Shown: positions 14,743-31,692 of the stretch, piece by piece
Numbering within the stretch: position 1 is the first letter of the stretch
How the letters are laid out: every line of letters starts with the position of its first letter
The notes under the pieces: model-generated
Told to the model about the DNA's origin: nothing
Seen by the model: the letters and a program-made list of their open reading frames with translations, nothing else
Database searches by the model: none
Position numbers and translations under genes: made by a program
Assembly: GCF_017876675.1 (NCBI RefSeq)
Contig: NZ_JAGIOI010000001.1
Span: 2,852,001 to 2,916,000, forward strand
Direction of reading: 5' to 3'
From: Arthrobacter stackebrandtii
GTDB taxonomy: Bacteria > Actinomycetota > Actinomycetes > Actinomycetales > Micrococcaceae
DNA length: 64,000 nucleotides

Positions 14743-14774
14743 GGGCGGGCTCCTCAAATGTTCCCCCAACGCTA

Positions 14775-14960
14775 TCGCAGCAATGGCCGGAAAATCCTGG
14801 ACCCCGTCGCAGCAATGGCCGGAAAATCCTGGACCCCGTCGCAGCAATGGCCGGAAAAACCGGATCGCTGTCGCAGTGTTCCACCGTCGCGTCGGTGGAA
14901 AAGCTGTCGCAACTGCCTGTGTGTGCGATTGGGTCGGTGGAAAAGCCGCCATTGCTGCGA
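14775..14960. repeat. 32-bp-period intergenic repeat array, copy 1
   Basis: Cores TCGCAGCAATGGC start at 14775, 14807 and 14839, with a partial core (TCGCAG) at 14871, all exactly 32 bp apart. The first two 32-bp units are identical. The array ends with an inverted core (GCCATTGCTGCGA, 14948-14960) and contains a TTCCACC/GGTGGAA hairpin (14879-14900). It fills the gap between folP2-like and the RibD-like gene and would be part of their shared mRNA. Confidence 0.88.
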
Positions 14961-14982
14961 CAGCGTCGGGTGGGGGGGTGGG

Positions 14983-15924
14983 TTAGCGCTTGGCCGGGTG
15001 GGCGGGTTCGTTGATGTCACCCATGTTGTGCTTGAGGTAGGCGGGCTCCCGCCACCCCAGCACGGCCTCGGTCATGCGGATGGCGGAGTTGGCGGCGGCT
15101 ACATTGTGCATGCGCAGCACCCGGGCTCCGCCCAGGATGCACGTGACGGCGGTCGCGAGGGAACCGGCCAGCCGCTCCTCCTTGGGCTGGGCCAGCGTCT
15201 CGCCGATGAAGTCCTTGTTGGAGACTGCAGCCAGTGCGGGAAAGCCGAGGGCGGCAATCTCGTTGAAGCGGCGCGTGATCTCCAAGGTGTGCAGCGTGTT
15301 CTTGTTGAGGTCGTGCCCGGGGTCGATGATGATCTTCTCTGCAGGCACGCCCAGGGACAGTGCCAGCTCAATCCGGGAGGACAGGAACGCAGCCACCTCC
15401 GTGACGACGTCGTCGTAGTAGGGGCGCGGATACACGGTGCGGGGGGTGGCGAGGGAGTGCGTGATGACGATGTGCGCCCCGGTTTCAGCCACCACGGAGG
15501 CCATGTCCGGGTTCGACAGGCCCGTGGTGTCGTTGATGACGTTGGCGCCGGCGGCGATGCTGCGCGCAGCCACCTCCGGCAGGAACGTGTCCACGGAGAT
15601 GATGACGTCGCTGGCCGCAGCCACTGCCGCAATCACCGGCACCACGCGGTCGCCCTCCTCCTCGGCGCTCAGCGCCGGGCCCGGCGCAAAGGGGACGCCG
15701 CCGATGTCCACCCAGTCGGCGCCGTCGTCCACGGCCGCAAGCGAAGCGGCAACCGCCGCATCCAGCGCAAAGGTGGCTCCGCCGTCGTAAAAGGAGTCAG
15801 GGGTGCGGTTGATGATGGCCATGAGCGCCACCTGGCGGCTGAAGTCCAGCGTGCGCGGGCCGAAGTGGTGGACGGGGTGGTGCAGCGGCGGGGTGTAAAA
15901 GGGGGCGGCGTTCATACCCTCCAT
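14983..15924 (-). CDS. folP: dihydropteroate synthase-like protein, FolP2 type
   Basis: TIM-barrel protein of 313 aa from the DHPS family. Pterin-site residues are present: N and D in I-I-N-R-T-P-D-S-F-Y-D-G-G, D in I-S-V-D-T, N-D in V-I-N-D-T-T-G-L, D-P-G in I-I-I-D-P-G-H-D, K in S-N-K-D-F-I-G-E and R/H in L-R-M-H-N-V. The second substrate loop, E-S-T-R-P-G in true DHPS, is replaced by V-P-F-A-P-G. The N-R-T-P-D-S-F-Y-D and S-N-K-D motifs match mycobacterial FolP2, a paralogue reported to lack DHPS activity. It may therefore act on a different pterin reaction. The ATG shares one base with the stop of the FAD reductase gene and has GAGGAG at 5 nt. Confidence 0.85.
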   Translation of the reverse strand: MEGMNAAPFYTPPLHHPVHHFGPRTLDFSRQVALMAIINRTPDSFYDGGATFALDAAVAASLAAVDDGADWVDIGGVPFAPGPALSAEEEGDRVVPVIAAVAAASDVIISVDTFLPEVAARSIAAGANVINDTTGLSNPDMASVVAETGAHIVITHSLATPRTVYPRPYYDDVVTEVAAFLSSRIELALSLGVPAEKIIIDPGHDLNKNTLHTLEITRRFNEIAALGFPALAAVSNKDFIGETLAQPKEERLAGSLATAVTCILGGARVLRMHNVAAANSAIRMTEAVLGWREPAYLKHNMGDINEPAHPAKR

Positions 15925-17192
15925 CAAATCTCCTCGAGCGGGGTTTTGGGGTCAGCCAGCTTTGCCGTGTCGACCTGCCGCCGCGAGGAGATGAGCGACT
16001 TGATGGCGTCCTGCACGTCCCAGATGTTCACGTTCATGCCCGCCACGACGCGTCCGTCCAGCACCCAGAAGGCGATGAATTCGCCGGTGGCGGTGTCGCC
16101 GCGGACCACCACTTGGGCGTCCTTGGTGAGTGCGCCGAAGCCGGAGTACTCCATGCCGAGGTCGAATTGGTCGGTGTAGAAGTAGGGGATGTCGTCGAGT
16201 ACGGCGTCCTGGCCCAGCATGGACTTGGCCGCGACCTTGCCGCTGGCGATCGCATTGGCCCAGTGCTCCGAGCGGGCGTAGGCGCCGGTCACGGGGTGCA
16301 TGGCGTTGGCGACGTCGCCGGCCGCGAACACGTCCTCCGCCGAGGTGCGCAGCGACGCGTCCACCTCGATCCCGTTGTTGATGGCCAGCCCGGCGTCCTG
16401 GGCCAGGCCAATGTTCGGCACCACGCCCACGGCCACAATGACAATGTCGGCGGGCAGGGTGGCTCCGGTGGTGGTCAGCACGGAAGTGACGTGCCCGTCC
16501 GTGCCCTGGATTTCGGCGGCACTGGCGGGCAGCTCAAAACGGACGCCGGCCTCCTTGTGCCGGTTTGCGAACACAGTGCCCAGCTCGGCGCCGATCGCCA
16601 CCGACAGCGGCACCTCCTCGAGTCCCATGAGCGCCACGGTGTTGCCCAGCTCGGTGGCCGTGGCGGCAATTTCCATGCCGATCCAGCCTGAGCCGATCAT
16701 CACCACGTTCTTGCCGCCACCTTCGAGCAGGGCATGCAGGCCCACGCTGTCGGCCTTGGTGCGGAACGTGTAGACACCTTCAAGGTCGACGCCGGGAAAG
16801 GGGATCCGGCGCGGGGCGGCACCTGTGGCGATTAGCGCCTTGGCATACGGCAGCGTGGTCCCGTCGGAGAGTGTGACGGTGTGGGCGGCGGGGTCAAGGG
16901 CCTTGGCGGCGGTGCCCGTCAGGACGGTCACGTTGTTTTCCGTGTACCAGCTTGCGGGCAGGGGCAGGAGTGCGTCCTCGCCCTCCTTGCCGGCCAGGAA
17001 ACCCTTGGACAGCGGCGGGCGCTGGTAGGGGATTTCCGGTTCGTCGGCCACGATGGTGACGGCGCCTTCGTATCCTTCCTTGCGCAGGGTTTCGGCAGCG
17101 GTGGCTGCGCTCAGCCCGCCGCCGATGATCACCATTCCGGGCGCCTTGGAAGATGCTTCAGGTGTGGTTGCTGTGCTGGGTGACTGGTTCAT
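15924..17192 (-). CDS. FAD-dependent NAD(P)H:ferredoxin-type reductase
   Basis: Pyridine nucleotide-disulfide-class oxidoreductase of about 422 aa, of the putidaredoxin/rhodocoxin reductase type. The FAD motif is V-I-I-G-G-G-L-S-A-A-T-A-A (about 21-33), followed by P-Y-Q-R-P-P-L-S-K. The NAD(P) motif is V-M-I-G-S-G-W-I-G-M-E (about 150-160), the second FAD segment is V-F-A-A-G-D-V-A-N, and a reductase C-terminal domain ends the protein. It should pass electrons from NAD(P)H to a ferredoxin or similar carrier; none is encoded nearby. The start is set by the length of family members, with GGAAAG about 10 nt upstream. It lies between folE and the folP2-like gene, and its stop touches the latter's start. 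Confidence 0.9.
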   Translation of the reverse strand: MNQSPSTATTPEASSKAPGMVIIGGGLSAATAAETLRKEGYEGAVTIVADEPEIPYQRPPLSKGFLAGKEGEDALLPLPASWYTENNVTVLTGTAAKALDPAAHTVTLSDGTTLPYAKALIATGAAPRRIPFPGVDLEGVYTFRTKADSVGLHALLEGGGKNVVMIGSGWIGMEIAATATELGNTVALMGLEEVPLSVAIGAELGTVFANRHKEAGVRFELPASAAEIQGTDGHVTSVLTTTGATLPADIVIVAVGVVPNIGLAQDAGLAINNGIEVDASLRTSAEDVFAAGDVANAMHPVTGAYARSEHWANAIASGKVAAKSMLGQDAVLDDIPYFYTDQFDLGMEYSGFGALTKDAQVVVRGDTATGEFIAFWVLDGRVVAGMNVNIWDVQDAIKSLISSRRQVDTAKLADPKTPLEEI

Positions 17193-17306
17193 GTCAAGAA
17201 ACTCTTTCCGCTGGAAATCTGGTGTCTCAGGTATGAAGTCTTGTCCGCCTCTGAAGGCGCCGGCAAGGCTCGGGTGCCCCGGGTTCATCCGCCCGGAATG
17301 GGGGTG

Positions 17307-17918
17307 TCAGTGGGGAAACTGCCCCCGCAATGGGCCGTCGTCGGACAACAGGCCGGTGAAGACTGAGGTGCGGGTCATGGTGCCGGCGGTCTGGACTCCG
17401 CGCAGGGACATGCACATGTGCTCGGCCTCCATCACCACCCCGACGCCGCGCGGGGCCAGGGTGTCCTCGAGCCAGTCGGCCACCTGCTGGGTCAGCCGTT
17501 CCTGGACCTGGAGGTCCCGGGCGAACAGTTCAACGCCGCGGGCCAGCTTGGACAGGCCGAACAGGCGCTCGCCGGGGAGGTAGCCCACGTGGGCCACGCC
17601 GCGGAACGGCAGCAGGTGGTGCTGGCAGAGGGAATGGAAGGGGATGTCCTTCACCAGCACCAGGCCCTGGTAGCCGTCGTCGTTGGGGAACGTGGTCCAC
17701 GAGGTCTCGCGCGGGGTCAGCATTTCGGCATAGGCGGCGGCAACCCGGCGGGGCGTGTCCAGCAGGTGCGGGTCGGTCTCGTCCCGGCCAAGGGCGCGCA
17801 GGAATTCAGCAATGGCCGCCTGGGCGCGGGGAAGGTCGATCCCCGGCGCCAGGGCGGGCAGGGTCTCGGGATCGTCAAATGCAAGGAGGTCCGGCAGGGA
17901 CGCGCTGGTGATGGACAT
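17307..17918 (-). CDS. folE: GTP cyclohydrolase I
   Basis: Converts GTP to 7,8-dihydroneopterin triphosphate, the entry to pterins and folate. Zinc and active-site segments are intact: S-L-C-Q-H-H-L-L-P-F-R-G (Cys and His ligands) and E-A-E-H-M-C-M-S-L-R-G-V-Q (second Cys). A P-R-R-V-A-A-A-Y segment and Y-L-P-G-E-R-L-F-G-L-S-K-L-A-R are typical. 203 aa, normal. ATG has AAGGG at 6 nt; a TTG two codons earlier is less likely. First gene of the leftward pterin cluster; 114 bp separate it from the reductase gene. The inverted repeat upstream suggests regulation. Confidence 0.95.
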   Translation of the reverse strand: MSITSASLPDLLAFDDPETLPALAPGIDLPRAQAAIAEFLRALGRDETDPHLLDTPRRVAAAYAEMLTPRETSWTTFPNDDGYQGLVLVKDIPFHSLCQHHLLPFRGVAHVGYLPGERLFGLSKLARGVELFARDLQVQERLTQQVADWLEDTLAPRGVGVVMEAEHMCMSLRGVQTAGTMTRTSVFTGLLSDDGPLRGQFPH

Positions 17919-17928
17919 ATCCAACCCT

Positions 17929-17957
17929 TTCTAAAGCTTGTATTATTGACTTTAGAA
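17929..17957. promoter_or_regulatory. candidate operator between folE and the HTH regulator gene
   Basis: Perfect inverted repeat TTCTAAAG-N13-CTTTAGAA, AT-rich in GC-rich surroundings. On the minus strand TTGACG, a 17-bp spacer and TAAAGT form a promoter whose -10 overlaps the right arm, and the left arm touches the folE ribosome site. The position suits a repressor acting on both divergent genes; the regulator beside it is the natural candidate. Confidence 0.7.
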
Positions 17958-18047
17958 GTGCAGACTCAAAGCGTCAAGCCAAGCGTCACAATCCGACCAA
18001 CTGCCCGCACCGGGCGGCATGAGAACGAAAGCAACAGGCCACCGGCC

Positions 18048-18821
18048 ATGAATGAGCTCAAGCAGGACCAGCCAACACAACCCGCAGGCGCGGGCGACAC
18101 CACAGCGCCAGCCGCGCCGACGGCGGCAGGGGGCGGCGCCGTCGTGCCTCACCGGGACACGCAGCTTGACGAGGGCCAGCGCCTGCGCGCCATGGCCTCG
18201 CTGGGCGATCCGGTGCGCAAGGAGCTCTTTGACCTGGTCCGGGGTGCCGGGCATGCACTGAGCCGCGATGAATGCGCGCAGTCGCTGGGGCTGCCCAAGA
18301 GCACCGTCCGCGTGCACCTTGACCGGCTGGTGGAGGAGGCGCTGCTGAAGGTGGAGTACCGCAAGCTGGGCGAGAAGACGGGCCCCGGGTCGGGCCGGCC
18401 GAGCAAGCTGTACGCCGTGGCGGTCGGGGAGATCAGCGCCTCGGTGCCGCCGCGCCAGTATGACCTTGCGGCCGCCCTGCTCGCCGCCGCCGTGCAGCGC
18501 TCCATCGACACCGGCGAGGGCGTGGAGTCCGCCATGGCCACCGTGGCGTTCGACGAGGGCCGCCGCCTGGGCGCGGAAGCCGGGAACATCCACGACCTGC
18601 TGCACGCCAACGGCTACAGCCCCGAGCCCGACGCCCAGGGCGGGACCATCATGGCCAACTGCCCGTTCCACCGGCTCTCGCAGGACCACACCGGCGTGGT
18701 GTGTTCGCTCAACGGCTCGCTGCTGGCCGGCGCGCTCGAGGGCTGCGGGGACTGCCGCCACGACCTCGCGCCCGACGAGGAGATCTCCCACTGCTGCGCC
18801 CGGCTGGTGCCGCGGGAGTAG
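18048..18821 (+). CDS. HTH regulator with Cys-rich, possibly Fe-S binding, C-terminus
   Basis: Protein of about 257 aa. A low-complexity Ala/Pro N-terminus leads to a winged HTH (about 45-120: G-D-P-V-R-K-E-L-F-D-L-V, S-K-S/P-K-S-T-V-R-V-H-L-D-R-L). The C-terminal domain ends in a cysteine array: N-C-P-F-H, 13 residues, C, 13 residues, C-x2-C, then C-C. This resembles the SufR type of Fe-S regulators with its similar Cys spacing (inference). It diverges from folE over a perfect inverted repeat, so it probably senses iron-sulfur or redox state and controls the pterin cluster. The start is uncertain because the ribosome site is weak. Confidence 0.78.
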   Translation: MNELKQDQPTQPAGAGDTTAPAAPTAAGGGAVVPHRDTQLDEGQRLRAMASLGDPVRKELFDLVRGAGHALSRDECAQSLGLPKSTVRVHLDRLVEEALLKVEYRKLGEKTGPGSGRPSKLYAVAVGEISASVPPRQYDLAAALLAAAVQRSIDTGEGVESAMATVAFDEGRRLGAEAGNIHDLLHANGYSPEPDAQGGTIMANCPFHRLSQDHTGVVCSLNGSLLAGALEGCGDCRHDLAPDEEISHCCARLVPRE

Positions 18822-18858
18822 GGAGGGAAGCGCGACGGCGCGTCCCCGGCGGCCGCTG

Positions 18859-18887
18859 TTGGGTGCGGCACCGCCGTGCGCTAGGCT
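18859..18887 (+). promoter_or_regulatory. leaderless promoter of the 257-aa gene
   Basis: TTGGGT, a 17-bp spacer and TAGGCT, which ends exactly 6 nt before ATG. No ribosome site is present, so the mRNA should start at the ATG. Confidence 0.6.
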
Positions 18888-18893
18888 CCGAGC

Positions 18894-19667
18894 ATGGAAA
18901 CTGCAAGCGGTGCCGAGGGCCAGTGGATTGCCGATGCGCTGGAGCGCTATATGGCCAAGGAGCTGCATGACCAGTGGATTGGCACGGTTGCCACCACCGT
19001 TCCCGACGGTTTCGAGGCCTACGTCCGCATCTTCCACCGGGTGGGCAGCGGCGGCGCGTCGGAATGGCGGTGGGCCGACATCGCCCGCGCCAAGGGCACA
19101 CAGCTGCACCCGGCGGCCCAGTTCCACCGGCTGGCAAAAACGGAGCTCTACCGGGACGCGCCCATTGACGGGCCGAACGGGGTGGAACATTGGCGCCCCA
19201 ACACGGGGGAGCTGGACCAGGGCCAGCTGGCTGCGCTCGCAGGCGTGCTGGCCGCACACACAGCAGAACAACAGGACATCTTCCAGGCGGTCTGGAATGG
19301 CTGGGGCGGCTTTGAGCCCGGAGCCGGTGCCATCCCTGCAGGACCTGGCGGACCACTCACCGTGGCCAAGGGATTCCGGAAGTACTGGGCCTTCCGCGGC
19401 ACCATGGCCGAACTGGCCCGCCCGCCGTGGTTCGACAACGACCTTGGCCTGAACACCCAAAGCCCCAACCTGGCCTGGCCCGCAGACCGCAGCTGGTGCC
19501 TGGCCACCGAGGTCGACTTCGACTCCACCCTGCTGGGCGGAACAGCGGAACTGATTGCCGCCGTCGTGCAATCGCCGGCACTGGAGGCGCTTGAAGTCAC
19601 CCTGGCCACGGACCTCAGCTCCGAGGGTGACCGGACCAACACCCCGCAAGGGCCGCCGGTGCCGTAG
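18894..19667 (+). CDS. conserved-looking protein of unknown function
   Basis: I do not recognise a domain in this 257-aa soluble protein. It has no signal peptide or membrane segment. It is rich in Trp (W-I, W-R-W-A, H-W-R-P-N, W-N-G-W-G-G, W-C-L-A-T-E-V-D-F-D-S-T). The C-terminal part D-R-S-W-C-L-A-T-E-V-D-F-D-S-T-L-L-G-G resembles small actinobacterial proteins near iscS genes. Codon use matches its neighbours, so it is a real gene. It stops 9 bp before the cysteine desulfurase gene. Confidence 0.75.
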   Translation: METASGAEGQWIADALERYMAKELHDQWIGTVATTVPDGFEAYVRIFHRVGSGGASEWRWADIARAKGTQLHPAAQFHRLAKTELYRDAPIDGPNGVEHWRPNTGELDQGQLAALAGVLAAHTAEQQDIFQAVWNGWGGFEPGAGAIPAGPGGPLTVAKGFRKYWAFRGTMAELARPPWFDNDLGLNTQSPNLAWPADRSWCLATEVDFDSTLLGGTAELIAAVVQSPALEALEVTLATDLSSEGDRTNTPQGPPVP

Positions 19668-19670
19668 AAT
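19665..19670 (+). promoter_or_regulatory. -10 element of the cysteine desulfurase gene
   Basis: TAGAAT lies exactly 6 nt before the GTG start, implying a leaderless transcript. Its TAG is also the stop codon of the upstream gene. No good -35 is visible. Confidence 0.5.
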
Positions 19671-19676
19671 TGTCCG

Positions 19677-20906
19677 GTGCCCGTGTATCTAGATCACGCG
19701 GCGACCACGCCAATTTCGGCCCCGGCCCTCGCCGCACTCACCACCGTTATTTCCCGTAGCGGCAATCCGTCCTCCCTTCACGGGGCCGGCCGCCGCGCCC
19801 GCGCCACGGTCGAGGCCGCCCGGGAAACCATTGCCGCGGCCGCCGGCGCCCACCCCACCGAGGTCATTTTCACCTCCGGCGGCACGGAGGCGGACAACCT
19901 CGCCGTGAAGGGCCTGTTCTGGTCCCGCCGCGCCGCCGACCCCGCCCGCAACCGCATCCTCGTCTCCAGCATCGAGCACGCCGCCGTGGCGGACACCGTC
20001 GAATGGCTCGTGAAGCACGAGGGCGCCGAAGCCGTCTGGCTGCCCGTCAATGCCGAGGGCGTCCTGGACCTCGCCGCCCTGGACAAGGAATTGTCCGACG
20101 GCGGAGCCTCCGCGGTCGCGCTCGTCACCTGCATGTGGGCCAACAATGAGGTCGGCAGCATCCAGCCGATCGCCGAGGTTGTGGCGCTGGCCGGCAAGCA
20201 CGGCATCCCCGTCCACTCCGACGCCGTCCAGGCCTTCGGCTCCGTCCCCGTGAACTTCCGCGAATCCGGGCTTGCCGCCATGTCCGTCAGTGCCCACAAG
20301 ATCGGCGGCACCGTGGGCGTCGGTGCCCTGCTGCTGGGCCGCGCCGTCACGCTGACACCCGTGCTTCACGGCGGCGGGCAGGAACGCACTGTCCGCTCCG
20401 GCACGCTCGACACCGCCGGCATCGCCGCATTCGCCGCAGCCGCCGCCGATGTCACGGACAACCTGGCAGCGGAGAGCGCGCGGATCGCGGGCCTGCGCGA
20501 CGACATCATCGCCGCCGTCCGCGCCGCGGTCCCGGAAGCCGTGCTGCGCGGCGTGGATCCGGCGGACAACCCGGGGGGAAGGCTCCCCGGCAACGCCCAC
20601 TTCACCTTCCCCGGCTGCGAAGGCGACTCCCTGCTGTTCCTGCTGGACATGGCCGGCGTCGAATCCTCCACCGGATCCGCCTGCACAGCCGGCGTGCCCC
20701 GACCCTCCCACGTCCTGCTGGCCATGGGCCTGGACGAAGACACCGCACGTGGCGCACAACGCTTCAGCCTCGGGCATACTTCTGGCCCGGCAGACGTTGA
20801 CGCATTTGTTGCGGCATTGCCGGACGCCCATGCGCGTGCAAAAAAAGCGGGCATGTCCGGGCATAAGTCAAGCATTGAAACCGCCAGCACCAGGGCCGCC
20901 GGCTGA
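19677..20906 (+). CDS. cysteine desulfurase (IscS/NifS class)
   Basis: PLP enzyme that releases sulfur from cysteine as an enzyme persulfide. Landmarks: Y-L-D-H-A-A-T-T-P at the start, [14 protein letters not shown] lysine K208 in S-V-S-A-H-K-I-G-G, catalytic C336 in [12 protein letters not shown]. 409 aa, typical. The next gene, mnmA, uses this sulfur for tRNA 2-thiolation, and the pair is a known actinobacterial arrangement. GTG start, apparently leaderless. It could also feed Fe-S assembly, but no suf or isc scaffold gene is nearby. Confidence 0.95.
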
Positions 20907-20956
20907 CCGGCCGCAACCCGAAACTGCACCACACGAAAAGAATTGAAAGGCACGTA

Positions 20957-22096
20957 ATGCGAGTATTGGCAGCCATGAGTGGCGGGGTTGACTCCGCCGT
21001 AGCTGCGGCGCGCGCGGTCGAAGCCGGGCACGACGTCGTCGGCGTACACCTGGCGCTGTCCCGCATGCCCGGCACCCTGCGCACCGGCAGCCGCGGCTGC
21101 TGCACCGTGGAAGATTCCAACGACGCCTGGCGGGCCTGTGACAAGCTCGGCATTCCCTATTACGTGTGGGACTTCTCCGAGCGTTTCCAGGAGGACGTGG
21201 TCCAGGACTTCATCAACGAATATGCCGCCGGGCGCACCCCCAACCCCTGCATGCGCTGCAACGAGCGCATCAAGTTTGCCGCGCTGCTGGAAAAGGCCAT
21301 CGCCCTGGGCTTCGACGCCGTTTGCACCGGACACTACGCCAAGGTCATCACAGACGCCGACGGCAACCCCGAGCTGCACCGCGCCGCGGACTGGGCCAAG
21401 GACCAGAGCTACGTGCTCGGCGTGCTCACCCATGAGCAGCTCAAGCACTGCATGTTCCCGCTCGCCGACACCCCGTCCAAGGCCGAGGTCCGCGCCGAAG
21501 CTGAGGCCCGCGGCCTGTCTGTGGCCCAGAAGCCGGACAGCCACGACATCTGCTTCATCCCCGACGGCGACACCGCCGGCTGGCTCGCCGAAAAAATTGA
21601 GATGACCGACGGCGAGATCCTCGACGAAACCGGCGCGAAAGTGGGCGGGCACACCGGCGCCAACCAGTTCACCGTGGGCCAGCGCCGCGGACTGAAGCTC
21701 GGCACCCCGGCCGCCGACGGCAAGCCCCGCTTCGTGCTTGAAATCCGGCCCAAGGAAAACAAGGTCATTGTCGGCCCGCACGCGCTGCTGGCCATCGACT
21801 CCATCCAGGGCATCAAGGTTTCCTGGGCCGGGCTGCCCATCGCCGACGTCGCCGCGGGCACCGAGTTTGACTGCTACGCCCAGGTGCGCGCGCACGGCGA
21901 CCCCGTCCCGGCCCGTGCCTTCATTACCGAGGAGACGGACGACGCCGGCACCCGCCAGCAGCTGCACGTCACCCTGGTCGAGCCCCTCCTGGGCGTCGCA
22001 CCCGGTCAGACCATCGTGCTGTACCAGGGCTCCCGCGTACTGGGGCAGGCCACGATCGACACGGCCAGGTCCCTGGCCCGCCCCGACCTCCCCTAG
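20957..22096 (+). CDS. mnmA: tRNA-specific 2-thiouridylase
   Basis: Thiolates U34 of Lys, Glu and Gln tRNAs. The PP-loop [11 protein letters not shown] (about 7-17), catalytic C98 in T-P-N-P-C-M-R-C-N, the G-H-Y-A segment, C199 in [11 protein letters not shown], and the C-terminal barrel (G-Q-R-R-G-L-K-L-G) are all present. 379 aa, normal. AAAGG lies 6 nt before ATG. It probably receives sulfur from the desulfurase encoded upstream. Confidence 0.96.
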
Positions 22097-22119
22097 CCGT
22101 TCACCCCGCATCGACCCTG

Positions 22120-22298
22120 TCGCAGCAATGGCGGCTTTTTGACCAACGCCAGTGCAGCAATGGTCCCTCTTTGTCCAACCCTGTCGCGACGATGCCAGCC
22201 GGCCCCGGCGTCCCTCGAAGCAACTGCGATGGCGATTGCCGAATGGCGGCAATTGCTGCGAGAGCGTCGGGGATAGAAACGCCATTGCTGCGACAGCG
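22120..22298. repeat. 32-bp-period intergenic repeat array, copy 2
   Basis: Left units begin at 22120, 22152 and 22184 (32 bp apart, decaying). Inverted cores containing ATTGCTGCGA start at 22252 and 22284, again 32 bp apart. The first unit (TCGCAGCAATGGCGGCTTTT) matches array 3 almost exactly. It lies between mnmA and the DinB-type gene and could fold into a long branched hairpin. Confidence 0.86.
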
Positions 22299-22377
22299 TC
22301 CGTGCGGGGGGAGGCGGGGTTGCGGTGCTGGCGTAAACTTCAACCATAGGTGACCTAGCTCACGGAAGGTTGTTTCC

Positions 22378-22995
22378 ATGCCCCCGCACACGATCCCCAA
22401 TCCACTGCAGTGCCTCGACAATGCCCTCAACCAATGCGCCGAAGTCATCGGTGCCATCTCCGCCAACCAGGCCGACTGGCCCACGCCCTGCGAGGACTGG
22501 AGTGTTCAGGACCTGCTGCACCACCTGGTGGTCCAGGACCTGCACAACTACACCGTCATGGCCCGCGGCAGCAACGTCGACCCGCTGGCCGCCACGGCAA
22601 CCGTGGGGGCGGACTGGTTCACGAGGTTCACCGACGGTGCCGCCATGCTGACGCGGGCGTGGGCGTCGGCCGACCTCAACGCCCAGGTGGCGCTGCCCGG
22701 CGGCGGAGAGGCTCCGCTGCGCAGCCGGATCGGCCTGCAGATCACGGAATTCACGGTGCACGCCTGGGATCTGGCCAAGGCCACCGGTGTGCCGATTGTT
22801 CTGGATCCGGCACTTGCGGACCAGTCCCTCGCCTGGGCGCAGCGCATGCTCAAGCCCGAATATCGCGGGCCGGAGCGAGGCATTGGCCCGGAAGTTCGGG
22901 TCCCCATCACCGCGGATTCGTATACGAGGCTGGCGGGCTGGTTTGGCCGCAGCCCGTACTTTCGCTCAGGCCCGAGAGTCCAGTCCTTGAGATAA
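22378..22995 (+). CDS. DinB/mycothiol-type TIGR03086 family protein
   Basis: Protein of 205 aa from the actinobacterial maleylpyruvate isomerase-N / TIGR03086 family. Typical segments: N-P-L-Q-C-L-D-N-A-L, W-P-T-P-C-E-D-W-S-V-Q-D-L-L-H-H-L-V and F-T-V-H-A-W-D-L-A-K-A-T-G. The His residues of D-L-L-H-H-L and H-A-W-D fit the metal site of DinB-like four-helix bundles. Family members are mycothiol-dependent S-transferases in some cases; the substrate here is unknown. GAAGG lies 8 nt before ATG. Confidence 0.87.
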   Translation: MPPHTIPNPLQCLDNALNQCAEVIGAISANQADWPTPCEDWSVQDLLHHLVVQDLHNYTVMARGSNVDPLAATATVGADWFTRFTDGAAMLTRAWASADLNAQVALPGGGEAPLRSRIGLQITEFTVHAWDLAKATGVPIVLDPALADQSLAWAQRMLKPEYRGPERGIGPEVRVPITADSYTRLAGWFGRSPYFRSGPRVQSLR

Positions 22996-23072
22996 CCTTC
23001 TGGTTGCAAGTTTGCTGATGATGCCGTGGCCACCTGAAAAGGTGATACATATTGATTATCAGTATCGTGGTC

Positions 23073-23098
23073 CAGGTCACACAAGGATGTGTGGCCTG
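23073..23098 (+). promoter_or_regulatory. hairpin in the leader of the peptide-binding lipoprotein gene
   Basis: An 11-bp stem (one G-U pair) with a 4-nt AGGA loop lies 32 bp before the ATG. The AGGA in the loop is not the gene's own ribosome site. It may stabilise the mRNA or regulate it. Confidence 0.4.
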
Positions 23099-23129
23099 TT
23101 CCATGCAAACCACTAAAGAAAGTTTGCAC

Positions 23130-24770: not shown

Positions 24771-24809
24771 GCCCCGCGGCCTGCTGACACACCACCACCC
24801 ACCGCAGGA

Positions 24810-24836
24810 GGCGGGGCTCAGGCAGCCCCGCCTTTT
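24810..24836 (+). terminator. intra-operon terminator/attenuator
   Basis: A 9-bp perfect stem (ggcggggct / agccccgcc) with a 5-nt loop and a TTTT tail sits between the lipoprotein gene and the first permease gene. Leaky termination here would lower downstream expression relative to the receptor. Confidence 0.78.
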
Positions 24837-24891
24837 GCATCCATACGCCCGCCACGCACTGCGCGGGCAGCAGAAGGAACCTCACGAACCC

Positions 24892-25983: not shown

Positions 25984-25986
25984 GCC

Positions 25987-26922
25987 ATGGAGACCAAACG
26001 CTCCCTCCTGGGCCGGCTGCCCATCATTTCCCAGCTGCGCAAAAGCGTGGGGCTGCAGCGCGGCATGCTCGTCGCCGGCATTGTCCTGACACTGTTGTTC
26101 CTGCTCACCGCGGCCCTGGCGCCGTTGATCGCCCCCTACGGCGCAACCCAGCGATTCGACGCAACCCAGGCGCCGCCGTCGTCCGTCCATATGTGGGGCA
26201 CGACGGCGGGAGGCTACGATGTCTTTTCCCGCACCATTTGGGGGGCCCAGACCGCGTTCCTGGTGATTGTGGTGGCCGTTGCGCTGTCCATCTTCCTGGG
26301 CGTGATCCTGGGCCTGGTGTCCGGCTACATCGGCGGCTGGCTGGACCGGGTGCTGGTGGTGGTGGCAGACGCAATCTACGCGTTTCCCACGCTGCTGCTG
26401 GCCATGGTCATGTCGATCGCCATCAGCCAGGGCCGCTCCGACATGTGGTCCGGCATCTTCTCCGCGGCCATCTCGATCACCGTGGTGTTCATCCCGCAGT
26501 ACTACCGGGTGATCCGGGCCGAGACCATCCGCCTGAAGGCCGAGCCGTTTGTGGAGTCCGCCATTGTGGTGGGCGCCTCCAGCATGCGCATCATGGCCCG
26601 GCACATCTACAAAAATGCCACCCGCACCCTGCCGCTGATCTTCACCCTGAATGCCTCCGAGGCCATCCTGACGCTGGCCGGGCTGGGCTTTCTGGGCTTT
26701 GGCATTGAGCCGTCAGCTGCGGCTGAGTGGGGCTACGACCTCAACCATGCGCAGTCGGACGCCACGGCAGGCATCTGGTGGACGGGCGTGTTCCCGGGTG
26801 CAGCCATCGTGCTGACCGTGTTGGGGCTGACGCTGCTGGGCGAGTCCATGAACGACCTGAACGATCCGCGCCTGCGAGGCCGGAAACGCGCCAAAAAGAA
26901 GAAGGAGCTGGTGGACGCATGA
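25987..26922 (+). CDS. peptide ABC transporter permease (DppC type)
   Basis: Second permease, 311 aa. The N-terminal OppC-like helix (about 27-45) leads to L-A-P-L-I-A-P-Y-G, then W-G-T-T-A-G-G-Y-D-V-F-S-R, the DppC/OppC segment, and the coupling loop E-S-A-I-V-V-G-A-S-S (about 183-192). The end is lysine-rich (R-K-R-A-K-K-K-K-E). Its TGA overlaps the ATG of the ATPase gene (ATGA). Confidence 0.92.
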   Translation: METKRSLLGRLPIISQLRKSVGLQRGMLVAGIVLTLLFLLTAALAPLIAPYGATQRFDATQAPPSSVHMWGTTAGGYDVFSRTIWGAQTAFLVIVVAVALSIFLGVILGLVSGYIGGWLDRVLVVVADAIYAFPTLLLAMVMSIAISQGRSDMWSGIFSAAISITVVFIPQYYRVIRAETIRLKAEPFVESAIVVGASSMRIMARHIYKNATRTLPLIFTLNASEAILTLAGLGFLGFGIEPSAAAEWGYDLNHAQSDATAGIWWTGVFPGAAIVLTVLGLTLLGESMNDLNDPRLRGRKRAKKKKELVDA

Positions 26923-28640
26923 GCGCGCACACAAGCAGTCCCGCCAGTGGCGGCCCCACAGGGGAAGCCGCGCCGCGGCCGGTCCTGGACATCGCGGAGC
27001 TGAGGGTCGGATTCGACACTGACCAAGGCGAGGTCAAGGCCGTCAAGGACGTCTCCTTCAGCGTGGCGCCGGGCGAGATCGTGGCCATTGTGGGGGAGTC
27101 CGGATCCGGCAAGACCGTCACGGCCAAGACCATCCTGGGCCTGCTGCCGGAGACGGCGCACAGCAGCGGTGCCGTGATTGTCAGCGGCAACGACATCATC
27201 ACCGCCAGCCCCCGCCAGCTGCGGGCCATCCGCGGGCGGGACGTGGCCATGGTGTTCCAGGAACCGTCCACCGCGCTGAACCCCGTCCGCACCGTGGGCT
27301 GGCAGATTGCCGAGGGCCTGCGCGCCCACCGCCCCCAGGGCAAGAGGGTGGGCCGGAAGGAGGCCCGGGCGCTTGCCATCGAGGCGCTGGGAAAGGTCGG
27401 CATCCCCGAACCGCACAAACGCGTGGACTACTACCCCCACCAGTTCTCCGGCGGGCAGAAGCAGCGCGTGGTCATTGCCGCTGCCCTGGCCCTGAACCCG
27501 GGCCTGATCGTGGCCGACGAGCCCACCACGGCCCTGGACGTCACGGTCCAGGCTGAAATCCTGGAACTGCTGCGCGACCTGCGCGACCGCTACGGAACTT
27601 CCATCGTCCTCATCACCCACAACATGGGCGTCGTAGCCGATTTGGCCGACCGCGTCGTGGTCATGTTCGAGGGCGATGTGGTGGAAGAGGCCGGTGCCGA
27701 GGAGCTCTTTGCCGCGCCCCGCGAGGCATACACGCAGAAGCTCCTGGCCGCGGTTCCCCACCTGGGACGGAATTCGGCGTCGGCCGGGTTCACGGAGCGG
27801 GCCTTCCAGGACAAGGAAGTGCTGGTGCGGGCCACCGACCTGGAGATTGAGTACCCGGGCCGGCTGGGCAGCCCCGCCTTCCGGGCCGTGGACAAGGTCT
27901 CCTTCACCATCAGCGCCGGGGAGGTGTTTGGCCTGGTGGGGGAGTCCGGTTCCGGCAAGACCACCATTGGCCGGGCCATTGCCGGGCTGAACCGCACCAC
28001 GGGCGGCTCGCTCAATGTGCTGGGCTACGAGATGCGCAACTACAGGGAACGCAGCTTCAGGCCGCTGCGCAGTGACATCGGCTTTGTGTTCCAGGACCCT
28101 GCCGCATCCTTCAACCCGCATCTGACCATCGGCGAGTGCGTGGCCGAGCCGCTGTACATACACACGGACCTGTCCGGTTCAGCCGTGACCAGCAAGGTGG
28201 AGGCGCTGCTGGAATCGGTGCAGCTGCCCGCCGCCTACGCCAAGCGGTTCCCGCACGAGCTCTCCGGCGGCCAGCGCCAGCGCGCGTCGCTGGCCCGCGG
28301 CCTGGCCCTGAAGCCGAAGCTGCTCATCGCCGATGAGCCCACCTCCGCCCTGGACGTTTCCGTCCAGGCCAAGGTGCTGGAGCTGTTCCGCGACATCCAG
28401 TCCGAGATGGGCTTCGCGGCGCTGTTTATCAGCCACGACCTCGCCGTGGTGGACATCCTGGCCGAGTGGGTGGGTGTGCTCTACAAGGGCCGCCTCGTTG
28501 AGCAGGGGATCGGCACGCAGGTCATGACGGATCCGCAGGACGACTACACGCAGCGGCTTATCGCCTCCCTGCCCGTGCCCAACCCGGCAGAGCAGGCCAA
28601 GCGCCGCGCCGCCCACCAGGCGCTGCTCGCGGCCAAATAG
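26919..28640 (+). CDS. fused peptide ABC transporter ATPase (DppD-DppF)
   Basis: Single 573-aa protein holding two ATPase domains that are usually separate. Domain one (about 16-280): Walker A G-E-S-G-S-G-K-T, signature F-S-G-G-Q-K-Q-R and Walker [13 protein letters not shown]. Domain two (about 300-560): [17 protein letters not shown] and [12 protein letters not shown], then the oligopeptide C-terminal element. Both sites look intact. Such fusions are common in Actinobacteria. It ends the importer operon. Confidence 0.94.
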
Positions 28641-28657
28641 CACGTCTTGGCCGGATC

Positions 28658-28704
28658 GGCGGTGCACCGGGTGGACAGAAGTTTTGTCCGCCCGGTGCAC
28701 CGCC
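28658..28704 (+). terminator. terminator of the peptide importer operon
   Basis: A 20-bp stem with one mismatch (28658-28677 with 28685-28704) and a 7-nt loop. It ends directly at the -10 of the chorismate mutase gene, so terminator and promoter are packed together. Confidence 0.75.
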
Positions 28705-28710
28705 TAAACT
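28705..28710 (+). promoter_or_regulatory. -10 element of the chorismate mutase gene
   Basis: TAAACT lies exactly 6 nt before ATG, so a leaderless transcript is expected. The -35 region falls inside the terminator hairpin and is poor (TTTTGT). Confidence 0.5.
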
Positions 28711-28716
28711 GTCCCT

Positions 28717-29193
28717 ATGACCGAATCGAGCCACCCGCAGCACCTGTCCGTTGAAGACTTCGACCCGGCCGCCAGCTCCCTCACGGGCGCCATTGACCCG
28801 GCCGTCATGGCCGAGCTGCTCTCCATCCGCTCGAGCATCGACAACTTCGACGCCACGCTCGTCTACCTGCTGGCTGAGCGTTTCAAGGCCACCCAGCGCG
28901 TGGGCATCCTCAAGGCCGCGCACCAGCTGCCGCCGGCGGACCCCAACCGTGAAAAGGCCCAAATCCAGCGCCTGCGCGCCCTCGCCGAGTCCGCCAACCT
29001 GGACCCCGCCTTCGCCGAGAAGTTCCTGAATTTCATCATCAGCGAGGTCATTCACCACCACCAGGCCATTTCCCAGAGCCACTCCGCCGCAGCCGCCACC
29101 GGCACCGTCCCGGTCGTCAGCCTGGACGGGCAGGGCTTCGTCGCCCCCGGTGCGGACACGGCCGCGGACGACGGCGGCACGCGGCTTCCGTGA
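28717..29193 (+). CDS. chorismate mutase (AroQ class)
   Basis: Converts chorismate to prephenate. The AroQ helical domain (about 27-120) shows L-L-S-I-R-S-S-I-D-N-F-D-A-T-L-V-Y-L-L-A-E-R-F, Arg and Lys at the expected active-site positions (R-F-K-A-T-Q-R-V-G-I-L-K-A) and a C-terminal F-L-N-F-I-I-S-E-V-I-H-H-H helix, like the 90-residue cytosolic mycobacterial enzyme. No signal peptide, so cytoplasmic. About 35 extra residues are at each end. Its stop overlaps the next start (GTGA). Confidence 0.9.
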   Translation: MTESSHPQHLSVEDFDPAASSLTGAIDPAVMAELLSIRSSIDNFDATLVYLLAERFKATQRVGILKAAHQLPPADPNREKAQIQRLRALAESANLDPAFAEKFLNFIISEVIHHHQAISQSHSAAAATGTVPVVSLDGQGFVAPGADTAADDGGTRLP

Positions 29194-30362
29194 CCCCCTC
29201 ACCACACGCCGGCCTGCCCAAGGCTCCGGGTTCCGGACCAGCACCTGCCGGCTCCGCGGCGCCGCCTGTATCCGCCGTTCCTGAATCCGTGACCGCCACG
29301 GTGCTGGGCCCCTGGCCGGGAACGGATCCCGTCGAAGCCGCCAAGGTGGGCCTGGGCCTGCTGCCCGAACCGCATCTGCCGGCACTGGCGGCCCTGCCTT
29401 CCCGCGGCGTGGGATCGGACGCCGTCGGGCGCACGGCCGCGCTGCTGGTGGAAATGCCCGTTGACGTACAGCCCTATGGCTGGCGCATCGTGGACCGGCC
29501 CGGCCTTGACCACCGCCGTGCCGCGTCGGCCCTGCGCACGGACCTCAACGTGCTGGCCGACGTCGTGGGTGCCGGGCAACTGGCACCGGTACAGGTCAAG
29601 GTTCACCTCCTGGGGCCGGTCTCCCTGGCCGCGGCCCTGCACCTGCACCACGGCGAACGCGCCCTGTCAGACCACGGCGCGCGGCGGGACATCGCCGATT
29701 CCCTGGCCGACGGGATGGCTGCCCATGCCGCCTCGCTTCGGGAGGCAGTGCCTGGTGCCGCACTGACCCTGCAAGTGGACGAGCCCGCCGTGGCACGCGT
29801 ACTGGCCGGCACCATCCCCACGTCATCCGGATACCGCACGCTGCGCTCCATCCCGACGGCCGAACTGCGCCGCGTGTGGATGCAGTTCCTGGCTGCCGCC
29901 CGAGCGGCCGGCTTCAGCCGGACAGCCCTGAACCTGGGGCAGGATGGCGCCCTCCTGGCAACCGGCACGCCGGCCGGGGACGGCACCGCGGCGGCCGAAC
30001 GCAAGGCGTGGCAAACCGCCGTCGGACTGGCCCTGGAAAGCGGTCCCGACGCCCTCGCAGTGCCCCTGGACCTCCTGGACACCGGCCATTGGGAGCAGCT
30101 GGCCGAGGCACTGGAGTCCGGCACCGGCGTGTGGGCCGGGCTGGTGCCCGCCCGCCCGGGCCAGGCGCCGCCGTCATACGCGTCCCTCGTGGACCGCGTC
30201 ATGGTGCCGTGGCGCGGGCTGGGCCTGGATCCGGCCCTGCTGAACCAGCTGCGGATCACCCCCGCCACGGGCCTGGCGGAGGTCTCACCGCAGGAGGCGC
30301 GGCGCGTGGTGGAGCGCACGCTCGAGGTGGCCGAGGAATTGACGGCGATTCGTTACCGGTAG
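29190..30362 (+). CDS. MetE-like TIM-barrel protein lacking the zinc ligands
   Basis: Protein of 390 aa usually named methionine synthase in actinobacteria. It has the MetE-type core V-T-A-T-V-L-G-P-W-P-G-T-D, K-V-H-L-L-G-P-V-S-L and L-Q-V-D-E-P-A-V-A-R-V-L, and a C-terminal segment R-I-T-P-A-T-G-L-A-E-V-S. The protein contains no cysteine at all, so the H-x-C and second Cys zinc ligands of MetE cannot be present. It is also half the length of MetE. It therefore is unlikely to methylate homocysteine, and its reaction is unknown. GTG start, overlapping the chorismate mutase stop by 4 bp, so the two are co-translated. Confidence 0.8.
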   Translation: MTPSPHAGLPKAPGSGPAPAGSAAPPVSAVPESVTATVLGPWPGTDPVEAAKVGLGLLPEPHLPALAALPSRGVGSDAVGRTAALLVEMPVDVQPYGWRIVDRPGLDHRRAASALRTDLNVLADVVGAGQLAPVQVKVHLLGPVSLAAALHLHHGERALSDHGARRDIADSLADGMAAHAASLREAVPGAALTLQVDEPAVARVLAGTIPTSSGYRTLRSIPTAELRRVWMQFLAAARAAGFSRTALNLGQDGALLATGTPAGDGTAAAERKAWQTAVGLALESGPDALAVPLDLLDTGHWEQLAEALESGTGVWAGLVPARPGQAPPSYASLVDRVMVPWRGLGLDPALLNQLRITPATGLAEVSPQEARRVVERTLEVAEELTAIRYR

Positions 30363-30386
30363 TTCCCGCGCCAGACACCTGCGGTG

Positions 30387-30413
30387 AATATGATGGATTT
30401 TCACCACCATATT
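30387..30413 (+). promoter_or_regulatory. inverted repeat before the SGNH hydrolase gene
   Basis: AT-rich 10-bp stem with one mismatch (AATATGATGG / CCACCATATT, 7-nt loop). It ends just before the ribosome site. It could be an operator or a weak end signal for the upstream operon. Confidence 0.4.
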
Positions 30414-30426
30414 TACAAGGGGCGCC

Positions 30427-31320
30427 ATGGAATTCAGGAAGCTTGCCGGGCGGGCCGCCGCCGTGCTCGCCCTGAGCGTTTCCGCGTCCCTGGCGGCCCC
30501 TGTCATGGTGGTCTCGCACCCCGCGCCGCGGCTTGAGGCGGGGCAGGCCAGCCAGCACCTGCCGGACCCGGCCATCCCGGAGCGCACCCCGCCCGTGCTC
30601 AATCCCGTGCCCGACGGCGGCCGGGCGGCACTGCCTGCAGCACGCGACGAACTCACCACGGTCTGGGACAAGCCGGATGGCACGTATGTGCTAAATCCTG
30701 CCTCTGGCCGGCACGAGGCGGTGGACCACGGCATAGCCCAAACAGCCGTGCTGATGGGCGATTCCCAGGCCGGCGGCGCCGCGGGCATCGACACCGCAGA
30801 CACCTGGCTGTCCCGGGGGCTGGAGGCGCGCGGCTACACGGTGCGGTTTGTGGGCGCCGGCGGCACCGGATTTGTTGCCGGCTCGGCAGCCCACCCCAAT
30901 TTTGTCGACGCCGTGGAAAGCGGTGCCGTCATTCTGCCGTACGGAAATCCGGCGCTTGTGGTGCTTGAGGGAGGCGGCAACGACGCCGCGCAGGGCGCTG
31001 CCGACGCCGCCATCCTTGCGAACGCCGAACGGCTGCTGCGGGACATGAAGGCCAGCTACCCCACCTCACAGTTCCTCGTTGTCGGCACCCTCGGCGCCGG
31101 GGCCGGCAGTCCGCAGCGGGCCCATGTCGACGCGGTCCTGGCCGGATTTGCCCGCAGCAACGGGCTGCCGTTCATCAGCGCCGGCGACTGGATCATGCGC
31201 CACCGGCTGGGCGGCAAGATGGCCGACGGCGTGCACCTCACGGCCGCAGGGCACCAGGTTCTCACCGGCGTGTTTGCCGGCAAGCTGGCGGACCTTGGCC
31301 TGGCGGCACCCGGGCACTGA
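30427..31320 (+). CDS. secreted SGNH/GDSL hydrolase
   Basis: Exported lipase/esterase-type hydrolase, 297 aa. A signal peptide covers about residues 1-28 (R-K-L then a hydrophobic stretch). Block I is V-L-M-G-D-S-Q-A-G-G, the G-G-G-N-D block III is L-E-G-G-G-N-D-A and block V is D-G-V-H-L-T-A-A-G-H with the catalytic Asp and His. The substrate is unknown. AAGGGG lies 4 nt before ATG. The natural target may be an acetylated sugar or a lipid. Confidence 0.9.
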   Translation: MEFRKLAGRAAAVLALSVSASLAAPVMVVSHPAPRLEAGQASQHLPDPAIPERTPPVLNPVPDGGRAALPAARDELTTVWDKPDGTYVLNPASGRHEAVDHGIAQTAVLMGDSQAGGAAGIDTADTWLSRGLEARGYTVRFVGAGGTGFVAGSAAHPNFVDAVESGAVILPYGNPALVVLEGGGNDAAQGAADAAILANAERLLRDMKASYPTSQFLVVGTLGAGAGSPQRAHVDAVLAGFARSNGLPFISAGDWIMRHRLGGKMADGVHLTAAGHQVLTGVFAGKLADLGLAAPGH

Positions 31321-31354
31321 CGGCCAGGTGGGGCTGTGCCGATCACCGACCCCC

Positions 31355-31672
31355 TCGCAGCAATGGCGGCTTTTCTTCCAACCACCTCGCAGCAATGGCT
31401 GCTTTTCCACCGGCGGCTCCGCATGATCGTTGGCACGTACAGGGCCCGAGCCGGCATGGCCGTCGCCCGGGACGTTCGCAGCGGGACCTTCCTACACTTG
31501 CCGGGATCCCCACCACCGCCCATGGGAACGGCGGGTCGGAGGTCCACCCGGCCCATGCGGCATGTGTCCCGGCGTTCGCCAGAAAGCATCCAGTGCCCTG
31601 CGACAGGGTTGGGTGAGTTGTTGCCATTGCTGCGATGGGGTCGGTGAAAAAGCTGCCATTGGTGCGACAGCG
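31355..31672. repeat. 32-bp-period intergenic repeat array, copy 3
   Basis: This fills most of a 372-bp gap between two convergent genes. Left cores TCGCAGCAATGGC begin at 31355 and 31387. Inverted cores lie at 31623 and 31655, 32 bp apart, and a third, decayed one lies near 31591. About 170 bp between the arms shows no gene-like frame or known element. The inverted arms would pair in RNA. Confidence 0.86.
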
Positions 31673-31692
31673 TCCTGGGGCGGGGCGGGGGT

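What the first reader, a model, noticed from the sequence alone, without database searches (positions are those of the whole stretch)
14775..31672. Dispersed intergenic arrays built on a 32-bp period with inverted arms
Three gaps (14775-14960, 22120-22298, 31355-31672) hold the same element. The core TCGCAGCAATGGC recurs every 32 bp on the left, and its reverse complement recurs every 32 bp on the right. Variable bases fill each unit, but the T-rich part (GCTTTT) and CCAAC are shared between arrays 2 and 3. Each array can fold as a long RNA or DNA cruciform. The strict 32-bp period (about three helical turns) argues against random decay. I know of no named element of this design, so it may be a new repeat family, with a role in termination, nucleoid binding or mobility.
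Basis: seen in the sequence. Interest (0 to 1): 0.78.

Follow-up and report, generated by a model that had tools for sequence, protein, structure and literature searches.

The report
Oriented 32-bp arrays at gene ends
Arthrobacter-type bacteria carry dozens of arrays of a 32-bp DNA word just after their genes; related species keep many of the same places but change the word, as if an unknown DNA-reading protein had switched dialect.

Summary
In detail: arrays at 14768-14967, 22113-22300 and 31348-31674, unit RACGCYRTCGCAGCAATGGCNGGTTTTTCNN. The genome has 84 exact cores (reversed control 0); 63 of 64 same-strand neighbours lie exactly 32 bp apart. Arrays sit outside genes, and no divergent context was seen in 64 + 23 placed clusters. 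Between tandem genes, pure arrays follow the gene just ended in 26 of 28 cases. The inverted arms thus mostly reflect convergent genes, each with its own oriented array. Arm-to-arm length steps by about one DNA helical turn (93, 103, 114, 124, 135), six long spacings excepted. Across the genus the frame persists while the word changes by species group, often at the same address: 38 of 79 relatives' elements examined map to a G000 element. Pairing between outer arms is weak; the central stem covaries. Best reading: a directional, phased recognition array for an unidentified protein at gene 3' ends, probably ending or bounding transcription (inferred). It resembles DUS dialects, REP/BIME and published CGTC-tagged REPs but fails tested features of each.

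The parts
14768..14863 (+). array 1: three + units of 32 bp (14768, 14800, 14832)
14936..14967 (-). array 1: one - unit, at the 3' end of the dihydropteroate synthase gene 14983-15927 (-)
14968..14982 (-). spacer from stop codon to array 1; C-rich, G-poor in the sense of the - gene
   Evidence: sequence; statistics
20957..22096 (+). mnmA (tRNA 2-thiouridine synthase); array 2 follows its stop codon
22113..22176 (+). array 2: two + units (22113, 22145), then a third degenerate head at about 22177
22237..22300 (-). array 2: two - units (22237, 22269); the next gene, 22378-22995 (TIGR03086 family), runs +
30427..31320 (+). GDSL-lipase-like gene that ends just before array 3
31348..31411 (+). array 3: two + units (31348, 31380)
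31412..31610 (.). non-repeat centre of array 3, about 200 bp
31611..31674 (-). array 3: two - units (31611, 31643), at the 3' end of a DUF58 gene (31693-32985, -)

Best explanation
A family of directional double-stranded DNA recognition arrays placed at gene 3' ends. Each 32-bp unit (three helical turns) has a constant frame (RACGC, an A at position 11, A/T at 14-16 and 24-27) and a word of about 13 bases that differs by species group. A sequence-specific protein, not identified, is inferred to bind units in tandem on one face of the helix, pointing the way the gene was transcribed. Between convergent genes two such arrays face each other with their spacing mostly kept in helical register. The most likely role is to block or pause RNA polymerase at the end of the gene and so set the boundary between neighbouring transcription units. 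In this genome it may act together with Rho, because the spacer before the array is C-rich and G-poor. SHOWN: unit, period, orientation, phase of the common spacings, shared addresses, dialects. INFERRED: the protein, and its effect on transcription.
For: Orientation: between tandem genes pure arrays agree with the gene just ended in 18 of 20 (G000) and 8 of 8 (G005/G013); 26 of 28 has a two-sided binomial p of 3e-6. No divergent context in the 64 G000 clusters with both neighbours called and in 23 others. Anchoring: median 27.5 nt from stop codon to array over 80 gene ends in G000; in G005/G013 all 13 arrays printed start 0-10 nt after the stop, and in 5 the stop codon overlaps RACGC. Helical phase: 87 lengths, R=0.79 at 10.5 bp; with six long ones added, 93 lengths, R=0.77 at 10.67, and for the 32 not explained by 32-bp steps R=0.63, p 3e-6; 18 further lengths R=0.84. 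Sequence is kept: word positions 7-19 nearly invariant while 5, 6, 20, 22 and 28-31 of the same unit vary. A/T frame kept over 19 genomes though letters change (positions 14, 15: 0.99). Dialects: TCGCAGCAATGGC 84 in G000, 31 in G012, 3 or fewer in each other genome; GTATCACYTTTGG 89 in G005, 55 in G013; CTCGGTTGCAATCGGGG 42/39/33 in G003/G009/G018; GCTCGCTCACTTWNNG 18/19 in G022/G001. Addresses. C-rich spacer: mean C-G difference 0.365 (70 spacers) against 0.066 at 158 array-less gene ends, p 8e-20.
Against: No binding protein was found; apart from Y1_Tnp none was searched for. The six long spacings are not in phase with 93 at 10.5 bp (R=0.54, p 0.18, other phase); at 10.5 bp they lower the 32 unexplained lengths to R=0.48, p 6e-4; counting each distinct length once gives R=0.42 at 10.5 and 0.55 at 10.67. 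Loci shared between species are not independent. At the mnmA address 12 of 23 species have no array and no obvious replacement. The C-rich spacer is not general: the 6 spacers of 12 nt or more found are 38% C, 31% G. The central stem covaries (positions 28-31 mirror 0.67 against 0.31, 52 elements; inner variable part 0.87 against 0.71), and outer words pair slightly above control (0.87 against 0.80); innermost mirror units agree at positions 5,6 in 0.50 of 24 against 0.25; a pure dsDNA model does not need these. One genome can hold several words. The A/T periodicity of the unit itself is marginal (97 of 2000 permutations).
Confidence: 0.37

Rival explanations
1. REP-like non-autonomous mobile repeats (perhaps an actinobacterial offshoot of the CGTC-tagged REPs) moved by an unknown transposase, tolerated mainly at gene 3' ends; dialects are successive element families.
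For: Extragenic, more than 100 copies, patchy presence at an address between species, hybrid arrays with two words (L058, L096), near-perfect palindromes at some loci (12 of 12 tail positions mirrored in G001 L142, G022 L120, G015 L189). The - unit ends in GCGTC; a published super-family of REPs is tagged CGTC at one end, lies mainly downstream of genes between unidirectional and convergent ORFs, and has no known transposase (PMC3733652, abstract and passages).
Against: Y1_Tnp absent from G000 (relatives not tested). The unit has no stem of its own (fold z -0.11, 169 units), copies run head to tail, which the CGTC paper calls negligible, and that paper names five phyla without Actinobacteria (0 occurrences). 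Same address with a different word in several species and the phasing are unexplained. No paired array of this dialect in IMG/VR.
Confidence: 0.24
2. RNA structure: the transcript's hairpin, above all the central stem, ends or protects the mRNA from both directions.
For: 33 two-direction elements fold far better than shuffles (mean z -7.7); the central stem covaries beyond same-genome controls; in 14 short G000 elements 8 of 31 predicted pairs show changes on both sides.
Against: 22 one-direction arrays do not fold; outer arms pair weakly; the whole-alignment covariation term is not favourable (+0.47); the T-rich tract is on the wrong side of the central stem for an intrinsic terminator; common arm spacings follow DNA turns. 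Centre-proximal pairing can also come from template-switch mutation in quasi-palindromes (recalled, not tested).
Confidence: 0.2
3. DNA-uptake-type watermark. The words are receptor sites for natural transformation; uptake drive makes each species converge on one word, and the words settle between genes, often as inverted pairs, as DUS do.
For: Species dialects, shared addresses, inverted pairs at gene ends. The DUS paper reports dialects and inverted pairs linked to terminators, and stray foreign-dialect copies (PMC3630211, passages).
Against: About 170 units at about 66 places in the 441 kb scanned, against thousands of DUS; outside genes and oriented with the gene just ended (26 of 28), exact 32-bp tandem arrays, phased arms. 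One search for competence work in Arthrobacter listed nothing on it among the 8 papers shown of 72.
Confidence: 0.15

Closest known systems
CGTC-tagged REPs (Di Nocera et al. 2013, PMC3733652; abstract, outline and passages read)
   Same: One end of the unit reads CGTC (here GCGTC/GCGTT); extragenic, mainly downstream of genes, between unidirectional and convergent ORFs; species-specific families; no dedicated transposase known
   Different: Published units are 20-40 bp palindromes with 8-9 bp stems, mostly head-to-head dimers, head-to-tail negligible, in five phyla without Actinobacteria; here a 32-bp unit without a stem of its own, head-to-tail arrays, arm spacing by helical turns
REP/BIME repeats with RAYT transposases (PMC2817692, passages read)
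   Same: Extragenic, high copy number, clustered, regular spacing, reported to aid Rho-dependent termination and to bind proteins
   Different: Unit not palindromic, copies in an arm point the same way, no Y1_Tnp gene in this genome
DNA uptake sequence (DUS) dialects of Neisseriaceae (PMC3630211, passages read)
   Same: Many copies of a short word, species dialects, inverted pairs at gene ends
   Different: Far fewer copies here, outside genes, orientation tied to the gene, exact 32-bp tandem arrays
Tandem protein-bound terminators such as the Sal box/TTF-I arrays behind mammalian rRNA genes (recalled, no call)
   Same: Oriented tandem binding sites just 3' of a gene
   Different: Many unrelated bacterial genes, dialects, factor unknown; comparison from memory only

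Membership tests
REP/BIME | unit contains an imperfect palindrome | tested here: not met
   169 units, first 24 nt: mean fold z -0.11, 15% below -1
REP/BIME | copies in alternating orientation | tested here: not met
   G000: no '-+' neighbours listed and 63 of 64 same-strand neighbours 32 bp apart. Two G009 arrays list '-+' orders; their word GGTTGCAACC is itself palindromic, which may cause this
REP/BIME | cognate RAYT (Y1_Tnp) in the genome | tested here: not met
   0 matches to PF01797 in G000; relatives not tested
REP/BIME | extragenic, more than 100 copies | tested here: met
   170 units in 441 kb of fetched G000 DNA; 65 of 66 clusters outside called genes
CGTC-tagged REP | CGTC at one end | tested here: met
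   reverse of unit positions 0-4 (G 0.75 or A 0.22, then ACGC) gives GCGTC or GCGTT
CGTC-tagged REP | unit with an 8-9 bp stem and 4-5 base loop | tested here: not met
   definition
CGTC-tagged REP | mostly head-to-head dimers, head-to-tail negligible | tested here: not met
   head-to-tail at 32 bp is the rule within an arm; inverted arms also occur
DNA uptake sequence | thousands of copies | tested here: not met
   84 exact cores, about 170 units in the scanned stretches
DNA uptake sequence | species dialects | tested here: met
DNA uptake sequence | promotes DNA uptake | not testable with these tools
   needs experiment
Intrinsic terminator | GC stem followed directly by a T run | tested here: inconclusive
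   two of three window arrays are flagged (3 of the 6 sites), but 6 sites were found against 10.5 expected in shuffles; unit stems no better than shuffles
Known structured RNA (Rfam 15) | match at gathering score | tested here: not met
   0 matches in the window
MITE / transposon ends | target-site duplication and variable insertion site | tested here: inconclusive
   no duplication evident by eye, not tested systematically; many sites shared between species, others present or absent

The most novel reading that the evidence does not exclude
A bacterial gene-end punctuation system: a protein with a conserved contact (RACGC and an A/T frame) and an evolving specificity domain coats phased, directional 32-bp sites after genes, and the factor and its sites change dialect together across the genome while many addresses stay fixed.
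Probability: 0.32. Interest if true: 0.9.

Novelty: new variant of a known kind. Interest (0 to 1): 0.7.

Why it matters
Dispersed bacterial repeats are usually read as transposon by-products or RNA hairpins. This family shows features of a recognised signal: direction, helical phase of its common spacings, gene-end anchoring and concerted dialect change at shared addresses. If a protein reads it, it would be a new way of marking gene ends in high-GC actinobacteria and a natural experiment in co-evolution of a DNA-binding protein with about a hundred sites. It also gives exact, cheap tests (5-bp against 10-bp insertions, dialect swaps).

Tried and rejected
Long-hairpin model for the outer arms: weak, kept only for the centre. 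Mini-terminator per unit: not supported by folding, although the terminator scan flags two units. RAYT: none in G000. Phage origin: no paired array in IMG/VR; 29 contigs with a single match of 16 fixed bases look like chance by my estimate and were not followed. A Rho-utilisation tract as a general part: strong in G000 but not in G005/G013, so kept as an option only. Genes between close array pairs as a possible mobiliser: by my own reading of the translations they look mostly like ordinary metabolic genes (names recalled, no database call).

Papers: searches listed no description of this element (two found no paper); one search failed. Reading on from the RepRanger paper (PMC12306157, passages) led to PMC3733652 on CGTC-tagged REPs, which I had missed. 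RepRanger's table also gives palindrome counts (5,512 and 705; column heads not seen) for Arthrobacter livingstonensis, so a generic palindrome finder may already list such elements without naming them. The library holds open-access papers only. Because of this find and I lowered the best reading from 0.40 to 0.37 and the novel case from 0.35 to 0.32, and raised the REP-like rival from 0.20 to 0.24.

Limits of the counts: G000 units were counted in 52 fetched stretches plus the window (441 kb of 4.43 Mb), chosen around known cores, so other words are under-sampled. One search scored at most 150 candidates a genome and at most 21, and both hit lists were cut, so those numbers are lower bounds. 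Gene calls come from my own codon-usage gene finder, not from an annotation. Of 66 clusters one lies inside a called gene (weak score, L069) and one lacks a left gene. Folding used 55 of 67 elements (64-340 bp long). One search left out four G000 spacings (204, 253, 263, 519 as total length), one of G005 (368) and one of G013 (401), and array pairs more than 1 kb apart; one search left out one G019 length (92); one search puts these seven back. Of the 79 elements, 42 align beside the element to a fetched G000 stretch; those stretches were chosen for holding elements. Presence or absence at single addresses was judged by eye.
Full report
WHAT IS THERE. The window (G000:C1:2852001-2916000 of a one-contig 4.43 Mb genome) holds three arrays at 14768-14967, 22113-22300 and 31348-31674. 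The core TCGCAGCAATGGC occurs 13 times with up to 2 mismatches against 3.6 expected. Genome-wide there are 84 exact copies and 0 of the reversed control. A weight matrix built from the exact cores gives a 32-bp unit, GACGCYRTCGCAGCAATGGCNGGTTTTTCNN; in 441 kb of G000 DNA (window plus 52 stretches chosen around cores) it finds 170 units against 1 in the reversed control. Same-strand neighbours within 600 bp lie 32 bp apart in 63 of 64 cases and no '-+' order was listed for G000.

WHERE IT SITS. With a home-made gene finder 66 clusters were placed: 65 outside called genes, and none between divergent genes among the 64 with both neighbours called. Pure arrays between tandem genes point the way of the gene just ended in 18 of 20; in two species with another word 8 of 8, and again no divergent case in 23 clusters. 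The first unit starts a median 27.5 nt after the stop codon over 80 gene ends in G000, and the spacer is C-rich and G-poor (mean C-G difference 0.365 over 70 spacers against 0.066 at 158 array-less ends). In G005/G013 all 13 arrays printed start 0-10 nt after the stop, and in 5 the stop codon overlaps RACGC, so the C-rich spacer is not general. The inverted arms are thus mostly two oriented arrays of convergent genes. Mixed cases exist: in window array 1 the single - unit belongs to the dihydropteroate synthase gene while its three + units face the 5' side of the left gene; array 2 lies between two + genes.

HAIRPIN OR NOT. Over 46 mirror pairs in G000 the units of the two arms are hardly more alike than units of different loci (positions 5,6: 0.33 against 0.25; position 22: 0.26 against 0.40); adjacent units of one arm are somewhat more alike (0.41), and the innermost mirror pairs of 24 short elements reach 0.50 at positions 5,6 but not at 20 or 22. 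One-direction arrays do not fold better than shuffles (z -0.25, n=22), two-direction elements do (z -7.7, n=33), as any inverted repeat would. The centre shows pairing beyond same-genome controls: in 52 elements of other species positions 28-31 0.67 against 0.31 and the inner variable part 0.87 against 0.71; the outer word is slightly above control (0.87 against 0.80) and the T-rich tail is not (0.43 against 0.47). The centre may be a selected stem or the result of template-switch correction of a quasi-palindrome.

HELICAL PHASE. The length from outer left to outer right edge clusters at 93/94, 103, 113/114, 124/125, 135/136, 145. Over 87 loci of ten genomes the Rayleigh R is 0.79 at 10.5 bp; for the 27 lengths not explained by 32-bp steps R is 0.65, p about 1e-5. 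That set left out six spacings longer than 200 bp. With them (93 loci) R is 0.72 at 10.5 and 0.77 at 10.67; the 32 unexplained lengths give 0.48 (p 6e-4) and 0.63 (p 3e-6); the six alone are not in phase with 93 at 10.5 bp. Eighteen further lengths read from the cut lists give R 0.84. Counting each distinct length once, 39 values give R 0.42 at 10.5 and 0.55 at 10.67. Loci shared between species are not independent, so the p-values are too small. The A/T frame of the unit (positions 1, 11, 14-16, 24-27) is kept over 19 genomes while letters change; its own periodicity is marginal.

DIALECTS AND ADDRESSES. A covariance model of the 93-nt form hits 21 of 23 genomes of the genus. In other species the same architecture carries other words. 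Counts by word over the 23 genomes: TCGCAGCAATGGC 84 in G000, 31 in G012, 3 or fewer in each other; GTATCACYTTTGG 89 in G005, 55 in G013, 3 in G000, 0-1 elsewhere; CTCGGTTGCAATCGGGG with up to one mismatch 42, 39, 33, 6 in G003, G009, G018, G021, 0 elsewhere; GCTCGCTCACTTWNNG 18, 19, 3 in G022, G001, G014, 1 each in G019 and G020, 0 elsewhere. Of 79 elements of relatives examined, 38 map to within 500 bp of a G000 element (16 of 22 in G012, 7 of 13 in G005, 6 of 11 in G013, 9 of 33 in the other fifteen genomes). By my estimate 1-2 would be expected if the 67 G000 elements were placed at random in the genome. Behind mnmA, judged by eye, elements with at least seven different words stand in 11 of 23 species (one of them a short form, G002) and none in 12. 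Behind the DUF58 gene the array of G000 is absent in its nearest relative G012 but arrays are seen in G003, G009, G013 and G019. So positions are partly shared, partly gained or lost, and words change in concert. Inside one unit, word positions 7-19 are nearly fixed while positions 5, 6, 20, 22 and 28-31 vary; plain gene conversion would even out all positions, so selection on the word is the better reading.

RANGE. A pattern of the constant frame hit G000 and three genomes of genus g10 of the same family among 396 genomes of the order; the reversed control hit three genomes once each. A generic model hit 26 of 197 genomes of the family: ten each of genera g1 and g10, one of g40 with 15 matches, and five genomes with a single weak match (at most 21 candidates scored per genome).

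MECHANISM. Direction, gene-end anchoring, phase of the common spacings and a selected word point to a protein that reads double-stranded DNA in tandem and acts at the end of transcription units. This is inference; no factor was found. The rivals (REP-like mobile repeat, RNA stem, uptake watermark) each explain part of the data and are set out in their sections.

NOVELTY. The nearest published kinds are CGTC-tagged REPs (PMC3733652), REP/BIME (PMC2817692) and DUS dialects (PMC3630211). Tested defining features fail for each: no stem within the unit, head-to-tail copies, no Y1_Tnp in G000, copy number far below DUS. The literature searches named in Tried and rejected listed no description of this family. 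I file it as a new variant among dispersed bacterial extragenic repeats; if a cognate factor is found it would be a new kind of system.

Noticed in passing
G000:C1:2125960, 2152221, 2722496, 1180695 (outside the window): The same genome also holds elements with other words (GGCATCACACCGCCC, CGCATCACATAAG, CGCATCAGATAAGACGGC) and one three-unit array in the G005/G013 dialect: old remnants or imports.
   Followed up: no
L242 (G002), L246 (G017), L241 (G021), behind the DUF58 gene: At the orthologous gene end these species carry other long inverted repeats (for example CCCAACTGAGTGACA in G017) without the RACGC frame; they may be further word families.
   Followed up: no
records NZ_JADHDY0100000xx and G012: The record named Sporosarcina beigongshangi REN13 has contig lengths equal to those of G012, a genome that groups with the Arthrobacter-type window genome; the name looks wrong.
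   Followed up: partly
window 31412-31610: The arms of array 3 enclose about 200 bp of non-repeat sequence; no array is seen at this place in G012.
   Followed up: partly
G000:C1:2722496: The word GCATCAGATAAGACGG looks like parts of the E. coli REP listed in PMC2817692 (GATAAGaCG and CGCATCaGG); probably coincidence.
   Followed up: no
window 14948-14960: The core contains ATG (GCAATGG), so mechanical ORF starts fall inside arrays (for example ORF 13984-14952) and may mislead gene callers.
   Followed up: no
G000 336350/337564, 1219848/1220753, 2528650/2529786 and other close pairs: Arrays are clustered: several genes have arrays on both sides within 1-2.5 kb, and the 2528650/2529786 pair recurs in G012, G005 and G013.
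   Followed up: partly
L333, L334 (G009): In G009 some arrays list '-+' orders; the word GGTTGCAACC there is itself palindromic, so strand assignment is ambiguous.
   Followed up: no
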